A DNA stretch of 64,000 bases. Origin: Branchiostoma floridae. Lineage: Eukaryota; Chordata; Leptocardii; Amphioxiformes; Branchiostomatidae. The position numbers were made by a program, and so were the translations under genes. Below, piece by piece: positions 4,720-54,200 of the stretch. Every line of letters begins with the position of its first letter. The stretch's first letter is position 1. Where the stretch lies: NCBI RefSeq assembly GCF_000003815.2, contig NC_049979.1, forward strand, positions 3,156,968-3,220,967, in the 5' to 3' direction. The notes beneath the pieces are model-generated. The model made no database searches. It saw nothing but the letters and a program-made list of their open reading frames with translations, and was not told the DNA's origin.

Positions 4720-7700
4720 ACGAGTTACCCGGTGGACGAGGAAATCGACCAAGCGGGAGAGATCATCGTGCTGAAGACGCACTTCGAGCCATTCGTTATG
4801 CAATCCATGTCCAAGAACAAAAACCCATTCGGGGTGAGTATCTTGTGTCAAATAAAGATATATATGCACTATCAAGAAGATCATTTAGCTATAGGGAACC
4901 AGGAAATCTGGTCTATGTGCACATGTGGTCAATATAGACAGGATTCTTAATGCTTGTGTCAACTGGAAAATCATATAAGAGACCAACAAGTCTGTCAGTT
5001 CAGTCCCTTCTGTATTTGCAGAGAGGAGGAAAGAGCTATACTAGATTTTTGGATACCAGTCTACGATTTTGGTGCTGGAACATTCTTCACATTGCACAAA
5101 GTTGTGTGGCCTAAGGGCTACAGAAATGGAGATGGGCACTGCCTCATACACCATCACCATTAGAACATACAATCTTTCTGTGTAGAACAACCCTCTACGA
5201 TATATTTCCTGTGTTGCCATCATTATCATTTTTGGTTGGATCTTGATGTATTATTGTTTACAACTTACGTTATGTTTGATTTGACTTTCTGTTATATTTT
5301 CTAGTTTTGGTGTCTTATAAGCCCATGCAGGCTGGGTGAATTGTGGTCGCAAGAGATTAAATTAACATTTATCCATCCATCCATCCATCCATCCACCCAT
5401 CCATCCATCCATCCATCCTTCCATCCATCTTTTCACAATCACAATCTAAAAAAAATTAGCTAACTTTCTTTTCCGCTTTCCCGCCAGTTTCTTGGAAACA
5501 GTAACTTGCAGGGTCTGAGGGAGTGGCGGGAGCCGGTGCGAGAGCTGGCGTCCTTCGGAGCGAACCACTTCGCCCCCTTCCTGCCGCCTCCTGCCGCATA
5601 CTCCGTTCTGGGGGCTGCCTACGAGATCATCCCATCTACACTCAGCCCCTTCTCGGGTAAGTTTTGTTTGTTTGTTATGTAAAACTGGTACAGCACTTTC
5701 AGGTGGTACACACCAGTTGTGCACTGGTGATGACGGAGAAGACAGACACCACATAAATTAAGTACATGTACATGTAAGGTTTGTTATACCAGGGAAGTTC
5801 CCTTAGCTATTTCGACAATTGCAATCAACAATTGACCACAGCAGAACATCCTAAAGCCGGCTTTACAATTCATGCGAATGCTGGCAAAATTTGTTGATCG
5901 GTCAGAGCTTGCTGAGCATTAGCTGTATTTTTTGCTGGAAATCTGCCCCCTTTACAAATAATTGGCCGGGCTTGGGCGACGTCTAATGATTAGATCATCT
6001 CTTGGACATGGACAAAGAGAAAATCGATTTCCTATGTGAGGACGGGCTTTGTAACTGTATGTTCCATTGAATAAAGAGACTCTTTGTACACAACCACTGC
6101 TTTATTCACACCAACGTTTCGGTGACAGTCTGTCAGCTTCTTCAGTGACATACCAACCTGATGAAACTATTCACGGATGTATGTTCCTTCCCTTTGCAGG
6201 CACGCTGTTGAGTAACCGGTACTTCCCGCCCTTCCCGATCATTCAGCGCCTGGCAGCTTTACGTTATCTTTTAGGTGCCCTAACTACTGTAGATGATGTG
6301 CACATGTAATATGTTCCATCTCTTTGCAGGCACGTTGTCGAGTAACCGGTACTTCCCGCCCAGGGTGTCCAACAAGGAGGTGATCCTCCACCGCCTGCTG
6401 GGCCTTTTCCACCCCCGACCGTTCGTGCACATGCGCTTCGCTCCGCAGGGCGCCGTGGCAACCGTGCGGGCCGAGAACGAGCGCTGGGTGGACGTGGTGT
6501 TCAGGTAGCTCAGTGGTTCATCCTGTTGACTGAGATGGGGTTTTTGTACGCTGTCTAACACTTCTTTTTGTTATAGTAAAGCCTATATGAGCGATGGCTG
6601 TTGCTGTTTATATCCGGGTATTTGATGGCTGTTGCCTACTAGGGCATTAGTAGATTGGATTAACAACTGATATTTAAATCAGCAGGTCAAATTACTGGTC
6701 AACATGTAACTCAATATTTTCCAAATCACCTGCTTTTTGTCTACCACTACATCACCGTGACATCATCGCGATCACTCGTATTAAGATAAGGAGTATTTAG
6801 GATTAAAAAGTATCAACATTGGATTACAAACAATGAGGAGTGGGACAGAAAAAAAATTAAAGTACAGTCAAACCTGCCCGAGCGACCACCTCTTCTCAGC
6901 GACCACCTGGCCATTTCGACCGCTTTTTCTCGGTCCCAATTTATTTTCCCATTGACGTAAGCATTAAGTGACCTTTTCTCAATGACCACCTGGCCAACGC
7001 GACTGCGACCGGCCCAAATTGGGACCCACAACGACCGCATCATCTTCAAATTGAGGTTTTCATCGATTTTTCATGATAACTAGCGTGATTTTGTGCCGAA
7101 ATCGGCCAGTTTGCGTCGGATTTGGGGGTTAAATTTACAGTTTACAGTGTGCGTGTTGTATTTGACATTAAAGACCTCGCTTCTTTGTGTGCGTGCAGTG
7201 TTCTTGCTATTTGCCATTAAGCACAACGGAAACCATTTATACCTTGCATCAGGCATGTTTTGAGTCGATACTCTTCTCGGCGACCACCTGTCCAAATCGA
7301 CAGTTTTTTTCCGGTCCCCCGGGTGGTCGTCTTGGGCAGGTTTGACTGTATAGACAGCTTCAGGTCACTGAACTAACGCTCACATTGTAGCAGCATCTCT
7401 TTTCCCTAAAGGTGGCCAGTGCAGCACTGTGGGGTTTGTTCACGGCGGCACTGTTTAGTTATTTTTGCAACTTGTGATAATTTAGATATTGTGCAATATG
7501 TAAAAGTATGACTTAGAAGACAACAAGATACACAAAATGGAAGAAAATTTATTAGTTCTTTATCTCTGAAATTTGTTGAGTCATCTACGAACCCCGCAGT
7601 GCCGCGCTGGTGTCGCAAGTGCAGTGAGAGTCCACCTTGAGTTTGAAACATAGAGCAAGCTGGACTTAATGGCTGGTTTTGTCTGTTTTTCAGGATCCAT

Positions 7701-51200: not shown

Positions 51201-54200
51201 AACATTTCTGCATTTACAGTATGTCCTGATGTGAGTGCATCATACTGACCAGTCCTGTCCTATGAAACTGGTTCTTACCAAACTATAGAACTGATGTGCT
51301 ACCCCACAAGGCAGTTAACCACTCATGTGATGCAAACAGGGCTCTAGCCAGCATCCGTTTTTCCGTCAATTGAAGGAAATTTGCCGCGTGTAACAGAAAC
51401 AATCTAAAACCAATCCGTCAACCATGATGGACAAAAATCCTTGGTGGGAGCTACAGGCGGCTTGGGGACGCCATCCACGGCTGTAAAAGCCACACACTGT
51501 TTCTTTTGCTATTGTTAAAGTTATGATTGTTGACGATGTGTGTCGGCGCCCTTTTGCATACGATAATCTCATTAAAAACCCGTTTTTCAAGGTCTCACTT
51601 CACTCCTGGAAGCATTCTTATCAAGCATTCCACGAAATTTGATAAGTAAATTTTCACGGTTTTCACAACAATGGGAATTGGCTGAAGGAAAAAAAATTCG
51701 GGCTGGCTAGAGCCCTGGATGCGAACCAACAGAATCAGACTTACCAGCGGCAGCCCTAGCCCCGCCCGTGCCCAGTTGACCTGTGACAGCCATGACCTCA
51801 GGTTGTCGGCCACGGGTGATACCATGTTGGGCGGGGGGAAGATGCCGCTGTTGCACTTTGGGCAGGTGTAGCCGGCGGGCGCCGTGTTGGCCGGCAGCTT
51901 CTGGGCATAGCTGTTCAGGCAGGACCAGTGGAACACATCTGTAATGAGATACAGAAAATGTTATTTTGTAGCAGCCTTTTGAACAACCTGCAACAATTGG
52001 GCATAGATTGTTACACTATTCAGGCAGGACCAGTGGAACACGTCTGGAACACGATACAGCAAACAAAAATGTTACACTGTAGCAGTCTTTTGAACAAGCT
52101 GCAACAATTGGGCATAGATTGTTACAACTTACACTCCTTGGGCAGGACCAGTGGAACACATCTGGAACACGATACAGCAAACAGAAAATGTTACTTTGTA
52201 GCATTTTTTCAATGATCTGCAACAATTCTGTATAACATAGACTGTTAAACTATTCAGGTAGGACCAGTGAAACATGTCTGTAGTGTAACACGATACAAAA
52301 AACAGAAACATTACTCTGTTGCGGCTTTTCAATGAGCTGCAACAGTTTTGCATCGATTGTTACAAAGTCTGTGTAGAGTTAGTACCAGAAGTTCTCTAGA
52401 ACACATCTGGAGCATAGAACAGATGGATAGCTAGCTACTTTGTAACAATCTGTGTAGATAAGTTGAAAAAGCTGTTAAGAACTTAATCAAGTCTTTGCAA
52501 AGACAGACAGGATTAGTGGAGGATGTTTGCAGAATGTGGAATGAAAGTTAGAAATATTATATCAAGATATACGAACTACTGAGCATCTTAAATCAGGTCA
52601 GACAAGAACAAGAAACAGTCATGCCTTCAAGTACTTAAGTTGACCACCAAGAATTGACGTGTTCAAAGACTCGTAATTTCCTAGAACTATCACTGAGTGG
52701 AATTCGTGGCTTCATACAGCATTTGCAATCAGATGTGCAAAGGTTAGGTGTGACAAGTGGTTCAGTGTAATATACTAGTAACCAACTTCTGCTGCGCCAC
52801 ATGTCTGCGAAGCTGGTGCGTTGTGCCGAATACCAGCTATTTGACAACAGATACAGATATTGTAATTTGTAGACCTATGATATGATGTTGCATCTAAACA
52901 GTCTCTACCAGTAACTTACCATAACAAATAAGTCTGACGACATCTCCGTCCGCTAAAGCGCCTCCACACAGGCTGCACTGTGGGTTGTAGTCGCTGTCCT
53001 GTAACCACTGCAGGTATGACTGCACAATGCACTGTGGACAAAACAACATGCATGTCAAATTGTTGTTATGCCCTCTTCTATTTGAGTATGTCTCAACACA
53101 TCATCATCGCTGATGTCACATATCTGCAAAATCACGCGTTAATAAGATCTGTATCTCTTCTTGACTTGACAAGGACTGTTTTCTTTTACAGGGACTTTAG
53201 TAGAGTAGAGTAGAGTAGAGTAGAGTTCTTCGGTTAGACCTGTAGGAATCTCGCTCCAGTTGAAACAGCTCCTCTTTACCTTTGACATATTATCTAGTCC
53301 TGTCACTGCACATGCGTTCTGATCTCCGTGCCCCGAGAGGGCTTATTGGTTAACTTAAGGGATAAGTTTCCTATGCAGCTGTGCAGATCACTTCCAGATC
53401 ACTTTAGTGTCACTGACGAAAACTGGTGGATTCCAGTGGAAACGTCTCGACTTTTTCCAAAATCATATCCGGTTGCTTGAGTAACTGCTTTTTGGCATAG
53501 CTGTGCAGCTGTTTATGGAAGAACAGGGGCTGCATTGTAGAATTGAGCTGCAGCTGTGGAACTCTCACAACTTAAAAAATACAACCCTTCTTTCATTTAC
53601 AGACTAAGTGTTGTATAGATGTTACACTATACATGATGTATGAGGAAAACAGGCAAACATTCCACATAAAACTTGTCATGCCATGTAAAGCGTGCCTTGG
53701 TTAGTTCAGGACTTCTGCATGTGATATGTTTTGGACATTCCATGCACGTTCTGACCATACAATAAACTTGTGATACCCGATATCTGGAAACTCTCCCAAA
53801 CTGTCGATTTACTGTCACAGGGAAATCGTATTTTGTAAGCAGAAACTCATCGATCCCGCAGTACTGCAAATTTATCCGTCCCTCCCCATATCCATATCAG
53901 AGACAAAATATTTTCGCTACTAACTCGCAACGTTTGTGCGTGTTCAGAAAGAATGGTATTCCTTTTTTTAATACTAGGACTGGAAATATTTACACGAGAT
54001 GGCGTTTGTACAAGTAGAGCTTGTCATATTTCTTTCAAATGTGAAGAGATAAAAATTATTTATCCAAACGCTCAGACAAACACGCAGACGACGCGACCAC
54101 AAAAATCGACACACCAGAATGAAAACTCACCTTTGGATGGTTGGAGACCAGGCAGTGTTCGCACACGTTCACTCTATGCTCGAAGCAAAACAGGTTCGTC

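What the first reader, a model, noticed from the sequence alone, without database searches (positions are those of the whole stretch)
6181..52290. Exon edges in three genes are surrounded by tandem 'ghost' copies with their splice sites
Four exons in two genes (SELENON exons at 6330, 8788 and 12059; ZFPL1 exon at 51938) are preceded by one to three tandem copies of intron end, AG acceptor and the first 30-60 coding bases. A third gene (43453) has weaker copies of an exon tail with its donor, and the ZFPL1 stop region is duplicated too. Units run 44-174 bp. The breakpoints always straddle an exon border, which random intronic minisatellites would not do. This suggests either a local mechanism that duplicates exon borders, or selection keeping decoy acceptors. 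I recall reports of amphioxus intronic minisatellites ('mirages', at an Adh locus) and cannot say whether they are the same thing.
Basis: partly seen in the sequence, partly recalled or inferred. Interest (0 to 1): 0.9.

Follow-up and report, generated by a model that had tools for sequence, protein, structure and literature searches.

The report
Duplicated exon edges in amphioxus genes
Several amphioxus genes carry spare copies of the first bases of an exon, splice site included, in the intron next door; this is a known oddity of this animal, but the spare copies look as if they had been kept working as protein code, which suggests that they change places with the real exon edge.

Summary
SELENON exons 6330, 8788 and 12059 and ZFPL1 exon 51938 are preceded by 1, 3, 2 and 4 tandem copies of intron end, AG and exon head. 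These are amphioxus "mirages", published for Adh3, globins and PGBD5; the window's 513-Mb genome also carries arrays matching the published BflGb6 and BflGb9 mirages.

"Always straddle an exon border" is wrong. 24 random 10-kb tiles hold 29 unmasked local tandem clusters; I judged 8 to be mirages by eye. The excess at exon borders is modest: 6 of 29 against 2.3 expected (p=0.014) at the strictest exon cut-off, 6 against 3.3 (p=0.076) at the next. In the window: 5/46 borders against 20/200 other positions.

New: ghost and real heads differ mainly at silent sites (60 silent, 26 replacement; 59 of 86 at third codon positions), unlike neutral ghosts (0 of 400 simulations). Reading from ghost acceptors is rarely productive (2 of 23 open). 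I infer that unequal exchange between homologues cycles units through the coding position. A simple simulation reproduces the low replacement rate, but not together with the high silent divergence, so direct selection on ghosts stays open.

The parts
6180..6361 (+). SELENON mirage 1: one ghost (head starts 6200) before exon 6330-6504; spacing 130 bp; 92% over 52 bp
   Evidence: ghost acceptor scores 8.3, real 6.8
8240..8837 (+). SELENON mirage 2: three ghosts (heads at 8323, 8474, 8648) before exon 8788-8945; units about 140-174 bp
   Evidence: ghost 8474 differs from the exon by 5 silent and 0 replacement changes over 48 bp
11692..12098 (+). SELENON mirage 3: two ghosts (11716, 11890) before exon 12059-12178
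   Evidence: neutral-looking heads (4 silent, 5 replacement over two ghosts); only match in the genome is itself
51911..52440 (-). ZFPL1 mirage: four ghosts (52043, 52161, 52277, and the weak 52406) before exon 51938-51745
   Evidence: only match in the genome is itself
43560..43720 (+). Gene 3 donor-side mirage: tail of exon 43453-43608 with its GT copied once or twice, degraded (stop codon in the ghost)
   Evidence: by eye; not found by the BLAST
45029..45138 (+). Gene 3 stop-region duplication: end of the coding sequence copied into the 3' flank, spacing 67 bp
   Evidence: no splice site involved
47945..48253 (-). ZFPL1 stop-region duplication: last coding bases copied behind the stop, and once more at 47945-47972
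   Evidence: no splice site involved

Best explanation
The arrays are mirages: minisatellite-like tandem duplications, born by ordinary local duplication, that happen to include a coding border. They persist because the copy next to the exon body still gives a normal exon, while the others lie in the intron (SHOWN: anatomy, abundance of such duplications, mostly non-productive reading of ghosts). The spliceosome takes the copy next to the exon body, most simply through exon definition, because acceptor strength does not tell real from ghost (INFERRED; no RNA data here). Unit number changes through unequal exchange between homologous chromosomes. Each exchange can turn a coding head into a ghost and a ghost into the coding head, so units with replacement changes are purged and surviving ghosts stay code-like (INFERRED from the silent-site bias and a simulation).
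For: Same anatomy as the published mirages, including L041 (BflGb6-like, 3 ghosts, units about 150-158 bp) and L037 (BflGb9-like, offset 157 bp) in this genome. Random tiles carry the same thing in MON2-like, ABCD3-like and PSMC5 genes. Coding ends without splice sites are duplicated too, so splice signals are not the target. Reading on from the ghost AG meets a stop before the real exon in 19 of 23 ghosts, 2 of 23 stay open to the donor, and 7 of 23 are in frame. In 7 of the 10 acceptor arrays scored at least one ghost acceptor scores as high as or higher than the real one. Ghost against real heads, 21 pairs in 10 arrays: 60 silent, 26 replacement; neutral-ghost expectation 0.57-0.65 replacement against 0.30 seen, 0 of 400 simulations and 0 of 500. 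Donor-side BflGb9-like copy, not in that set: 9 silent, 3 replacement in the exon part. Unit number differs between haplotypes or assemblies: BflGb6 6 against 3, PGBD5 2 against 7 and 3 against 6. Non-crossover tracts in B. floridae average 99 bp. Forward simulation: exchange within one chromosome gives pN/pS 0.37-0.78; exchange between homologues gives 0.35-0.51 at low rates, 0.22 and 0.12 at 11 and 36 times the replacement mutation rate per unit.
Against: A first version of the simulation, in which the first unit was never replaced, gave pN/pS of 0.40 or more in all six homologue settings. In the second the setting that gives 0.12 has ghost-real silent divergence only about 1.1 times allelic and 2.2 units per array, while the observed silent divergence of 0.286 is about 7 times the published pi_S of 0.0397; the model does not fit both at once. 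Several ghosts look neutral (SELENON e12059, ABCD e91, ghost-ghost pairs of ZFPL1). Taking the worst ghost of each of the five random-tile arrays, the bias is not significant (50 and 58 of 500). No RNA, no second haplotype and no other species were available.
Confidence: 0.6

Rival explanations
1. Plain neutral ghosts: each ghost is a one-way dead copy of the real exon edge, drifting in the intron, with at most gene conversion along the same chromosome.
For: Abundance of tandem duplications away from exons; neutral-looking ghosts at SELENON e12059, ABCD e91 and ZFPL1 ghost-ghost pairs.
Against: Predicts pN/pS of about 0.5 or more (my derivation); observed 0.12 over 22 pairs, third positions 59 of 86, 0 of 400 and 0 of 500 simulations; same-chromosome exchange in simulation stays at 0.37-0.78.
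Confidence: 0.2
2. Directly selected ghosts: ghost acceptors and heads do something for the gene (decoy or regulatory acceptors, occasional use as exon edge) and are constrained for that.
For: 23 of 24 ghost acceptors keep AG; in 7 of 10 arrays one scores at least as high as the real site; code-like heads; the simple turnover model does not fully fit.
Against: Codon-level constraint needs translation, but 21 of 23 ghost readings meet a stop before the donor; AG retention is borderline and ghosts are not independent; the globin paper says that its RT-PCR and the Adh3 data suggest regular splicing (passage); duplications without splice sites occur too.
Confidence: 0.12
3. A local mutational mechanism targets exon borders (for example at the GC step or at splice signals).
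For: 6 of 29 clusters straddle a strict-cut-off border, 2.3 expected, p=0.014; 12 against 5.0 at the loosest cut-off, 0 of 1000 shuffles as high.
Against: p=0.076 at the middle cut-off; at the loosest one, three hits look like chance frames inside arrays; in the window 5/46 borders against 20/200 positions; a frozen exon half keeps border copies detectable longer, which alone favours them (inference).
Confidence: 0.15
4. Assembly artefact: alleles or repeats wrongly laid in tandem.
For: The published BflGb6 array of one haplotype appeared aberrantly assembled in the old draft; runs of N lie in the window and beside L037.
Against: Most copies differ from each other by their own changes and occur in up to 5 units; the PGBD5 repeats were confirmed by re-examined Sanger and new Illumina data (passage).
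Confidence: 0.04

Closest known systems
Amphioxus 'mirages' (Adh3, globins BflGb6/BflGb9, troponin C, PGBD5)
   Same: Tandem units of intron end plus splice site plus exon edge; both exon ends affected; unit size; splice signals kept in many units; same animal
   Different: New loci here and a first random-tile frequency; the word 'synonymous' does not occur in the main text of the two mirage papers I could search, so the codon-level comparison of ghosts seems new; the Adh paper is not held
Intron gain by tandem genomic duplication (potato RdRp and Drosophila cases, seen only as a search listing)
   Same: Short tandem duplication carrying splice signals in a coding border
   Different: Here the duplicated piece lies in an existing intron and no new intron is seen
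Ordinary minisatellites with unequal exchange (general knowledge)
   Same: Unit turnover, copy number change
   Different: One unit of the array is coding

Membership tests
amphioxus mirages | Tandem repeat spanning an intron-exon boundary | tested here: met
amphioxus mirages | Occurs in Branchiostoma | tested here: met
   genome of 513 Mb with BflGb6- and BflGb9-like arrays of the published unit sizes; the fit of size and 19 large contigs to B. floridae is recalled
amphioxus mirages | Units of about 10-160 bp | tested here: met
   main spacings 105-175 bp, slightly above the longest size given
amphioxus mirages | Splice signals present in many copies | tested here: met
   10 of 10 window ghosts; 23 of 24 overall
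amphioxus mirages | Unit number varies between haplotypes or somatically | not testable with these tools
   one haplotype held; two searches found no second copy of two arrays
amphioxus mirages | Regular splicing of the mRNA | not testable with these tools
   no RNA data
amphioxus mirages | Homogenisation inside the cluster, edge unit excluded | tested here: inconclusive
   ZFPL1 ghosts 52161 and 52043 are closer to each other than to the real unit in the intron half (52/59 against 42/53 and 45/54) but not in the exon half (23/28 against 24/28 and 26/28)
transposable element arrays | Copies elsewhere in the genome | tested here: not met
   two of the four acceptor arrays searched whole, each found only at its own place

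The most novel reading that the evidence does not exclude
Mirage units form a shared pool with the coding exon edge: ghosts are exon heads in waiting, exchanged with the real head between homologues, so that purifying selection on the protein reaches DNA that is never translated on that chromosome. In a stronger form, the ghosts are themselves kept by selection.
Probability: 0.45. Interest if true: 0.75.

Novelty: new member of a known kind. Interest (0 to 1): 0.5.

Why it matters
A random sample suggests that mirages are a common feature of amphioxus genes, even in a core one such as PSMC5. They are natural tests of how a spliceosome picks one of up to five near-identical acceptors. If ghosts cycle through the coding position, intronic DNA carries a protein-level selection record, and gene prediction, dN/dS and intron-gain studies in this key chordate must allow for it.

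Tried and rejected
Pfam on single exons named none of the genes of interest. Joined exons gave AAA and proteasomal ATPase domains (PSMC5), the Mon2/Sec7 HUS domain, the ABC transmembrane region, and for ZFPL1 only a RING match below its cut-off; nothing for SELENON or gene 3. SELENON and ZFPL1 are recalled from sequence, MON2 from the HUS domain plus recall; PSMC5 and ABCD3 rest on solved structures; the MON2-like piece had no match among solved structures.

Zero indels in exon heads against 31 in intron halves is not used as evidence: I had set the exon lengths by eye, and at least two real indels (SELENON 6330 beyond 32 bp, ghost 8323) fall outside or were forced into mismatches.

Free-phase periodicity control: non-exonic arrays 205 of 394 differences in the best phase, exon heads 65 of 88; weak as a control because segments with few differences favour a high value. 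An Adh3 control was not pursued: I could not tell Adh3 apart among the 23 ADH_N matches. The Adh paper is not held.

Rows dropped or kept before counts: clusters whose first copy is mostly masked as repeats shared between tiles were dropped; the L023 coiled-coil exon duplication counts among the 6 straddling clusters but looks like a functional exon duplication, not a ghost; L021 (8-bp head) and ZFPL1 ghost 52406 are left out of the codon counts (L021 is); PSMC5 e5422 is but not. Tile L042, fetched last, holds three clusters and no clear mirage and is not in the tests. The last codon of some matches may lie beyond the breakpoint and was kept, which counts against the silent bias. The exon caller was trained on the window exons that it was checked on. 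One search failed by a script error and was redone.
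Full report
WHAT IS THERE. Tandem Repeats Finder finds three of the four acceptor arrays (8571, 11687, 51914) and a local self-BLAST all four. Splice sites and reading frames give SELENON exons 5488-5656, 6330-6504, 7694-7845, 8788-8945, 9281-9391, 10478-10583 (with the TGA of the SCUG motif at its end; motif recalled), 10883-11054 and 12059-12178; ZFPL1 exons on the minus strand 53031-52920, 51938-51745, 50748-50682, 50084-49854, 49556-49430 and 48413-48209; and a small gene 3 of unknown family at 43453-45075. 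Exon 6330 has one ghost, 8788 three, 12059 two, and ZFPL1 51938 four (one weak), ten in all, each with AG at the border. Coding ends are duplicated too, in ZFPL1 and gene 3, where no splice site is involved.

WHAT IT IS. Mirages are published. The globin paper, of which I saw passages, describes minisatellite-like duplications of intron-exon borders in BflGb6 (150-160 bp) and BflGb9 (157 bp), cites Adh3 and others, reports 6 and 3 units in two haplotypes of BflGb6, and says that RT-PCR suggests no interference with regular splicing (PMC3087553). The PGBD5 paper (passages) adds 60- and 108-bp repeats with different copy numbers in two versions of the sequence (PMC3902484). The window lies in a held genome of 513 Mb. 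A globin search gave 9 places; I fetched all nine. L041 has three ghosts before exon 2 with units of about 150-158 bp, and L037 repeats the 3' end of exon 2 at 157 bp: the published pair by anatomy and size. In the other seven the BLAST shows no duplication across the exon ends, judged by reading frame only: four have no match at all, L036 and L040 have arrays that look intronic, L033 one upstream match.

HOW COMMON. A home-made exon caller (codon usage plus splice matrices from the window genes, one retraining) recovers 13 of the 18 curated window exons exactly; in the tiles it makes 117, 76 and 47 calls at cut-offs 12, 15 and 20, against 57, 19 and 7 on reversed sequence. Border test at match score 36: 9 of 143 borders at cut-off 15, 8 of 89 at 20, against 30 of 920 random non-exon positions in each; in the window 5 of 46 against 20 of 200 at 15, and 5 of 30 against 17 of 200 at 20. 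Cluster test: 29 unmasked clusters in 240 kb; straddling a border 12 (expected 5.0, 0 of 1000 shuffles as high) at cut-off 12, 6 (3.3, p=0.076) at 15, 6 (2.3, p=0.014) at 20; at 12 three hits (L009, L026, L027) look like chance open frames inside arrays. By eye 8 clusters in 4 tiles are mirages: ABCD3-like L012 (acceptor 91, donor near 4264), MON2-like L019 (acceptors 944, 2056), L021 (acceptor 3163), PSMC5 L032 (acceptors 3723 and 5422, donor 4496). So tandem duplications are frequent in and outside genes, and exon borders are hit about as often or about two to three times as often.

GHOSTS ARE CODE-LIKE. Ghost and real heads were compared codon by codon, without gaps. By the site-counting method over 22 pairs in 11 arrays: 59.7 silent and 26.3 replacement differences at 208 silent and 743 replacement sites, pN/pS 0.12. 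Over 21 pairs of 10 arrays: 60 and 26, codon positions 16, 11, 59. A simulated neutral ghost beside a constrained exon gives 0.61-0.65 replacement at transition bias 2-4 and 0.57-0.60 with extra mutation of G and C; observed 0.30; 0 of 400 and 0 of 500. One pair per array: 30 to 14 and 35 to 19 (0 of 400 each), worst choice 28 to 20 (0 or 1 of 400). By group: window 23 to 15 (1 and 2 of 500), random tiles 25 to 9 (1 and 0 of 500), globin 12 to 2 (0 and 1 of 500); the worst ghost of each of the five random-tile arrays 10 to 7, not significant (50 and 58 of 500). The donor-side L037 copy, kept apart, has 9 silent and 3 replacement changes in the exon part. Strongest: MON2 e943, Gb6, PSMC5 and SELENON ghost 8474. 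Neutral-looking: SELENON e12059 and ABCD e91.

WHY. Ghosts are unlikely to be translated usefully from their own AG: stop before the real exon in 19 of 23, open to the donor in 2 (both PSMC5 e5422), in frame in 7 of 23. A copy that became a ghost on this chromosome and drifted should not show pN/pS far below 0.5, since ghost and real lineages have the same age, and conversion along one chromosome does not change that (my derivation; simulation 0.37-0.78). Units that were coding on another homologue until recently can. Forward simulation of homologue exchange gives 0.35-0.51 at low rates, 0.22 at 11 times and 0.12 at 36 times the replacement mutation rate per unit; an earlier version in which the first unit was never replaced stayed at 0.40-0.77. 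With the published mutation rate of 5.89e-9 (PMC12862219, passages), 36 times is about 1e-5 per meiosis by hand; the published allelic non-crossover events, 96 per paternal gamete in 73 Mb with a mean tract of 99 bp (PMC12500494, passages), amount to about 1e-4 per site, though exchange between unequal units was not measured. The weak point is the silent divergence: 0.286 here against pi_S 0.0397, while the two best settings give only 1.1 and 2.3 times the allelic value. So cycling is the best account of the ratio but does not explain everything; direct selection on ghosts or longer-lived unit lineages remain possible.

SPLICING. In 7 of the 10 arrays scored a ghost acceptor scores at least as high as the real one, so the choice must rest on something else, most simply the nearness of the exon body and donor (exon definition, inferred).

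AGAINST. No RNA, one haplotype, small numbers, ghosts of one array are related, exon calls are mine, and the border excess depends on the cut-off. My searches of the held library for mirages, tandem repeats and splice sites in amphioxus showed, by titles and starts of abstracts, no genome-wide survey and no codon analysis of ghosts; the library lacks many journals, including the Adh paper.

Noticed in passing
window 6862-7351: A short element of about 490 bp inside a SELENON intron has at least 39 further copies at 94-96% identity in the genome (a capped list).
   Followed up: no
L019 about 2230-2400: The donor of the second MON2-like exon is itself repeated in a short array of about 33-bp units carrying GTGAGT.
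   Followed up: partly
L032 5198-5470: PSMC5 ghost junction shows a 6-base match (CAGTGG) between intron and exon at the likely breakpoint, hinting at microhomology; one case, by eye.
   Followed up: no
window 31434-33111 and 38216-41121: Two pairs of tandem arrays whose consensus units look reverse-complementary (69-bp and 162-bp units), possibly ends of mobile elements.
   Followed up: no
window 63222-63996: 365-bp tandem repeat at 98% identity at the window's edge.
   Followed up: no
L023 1828-2943: Larger duplication of a coiled-coil-like exon with its intron, with both exons apparently usable.
   Followed up: partly
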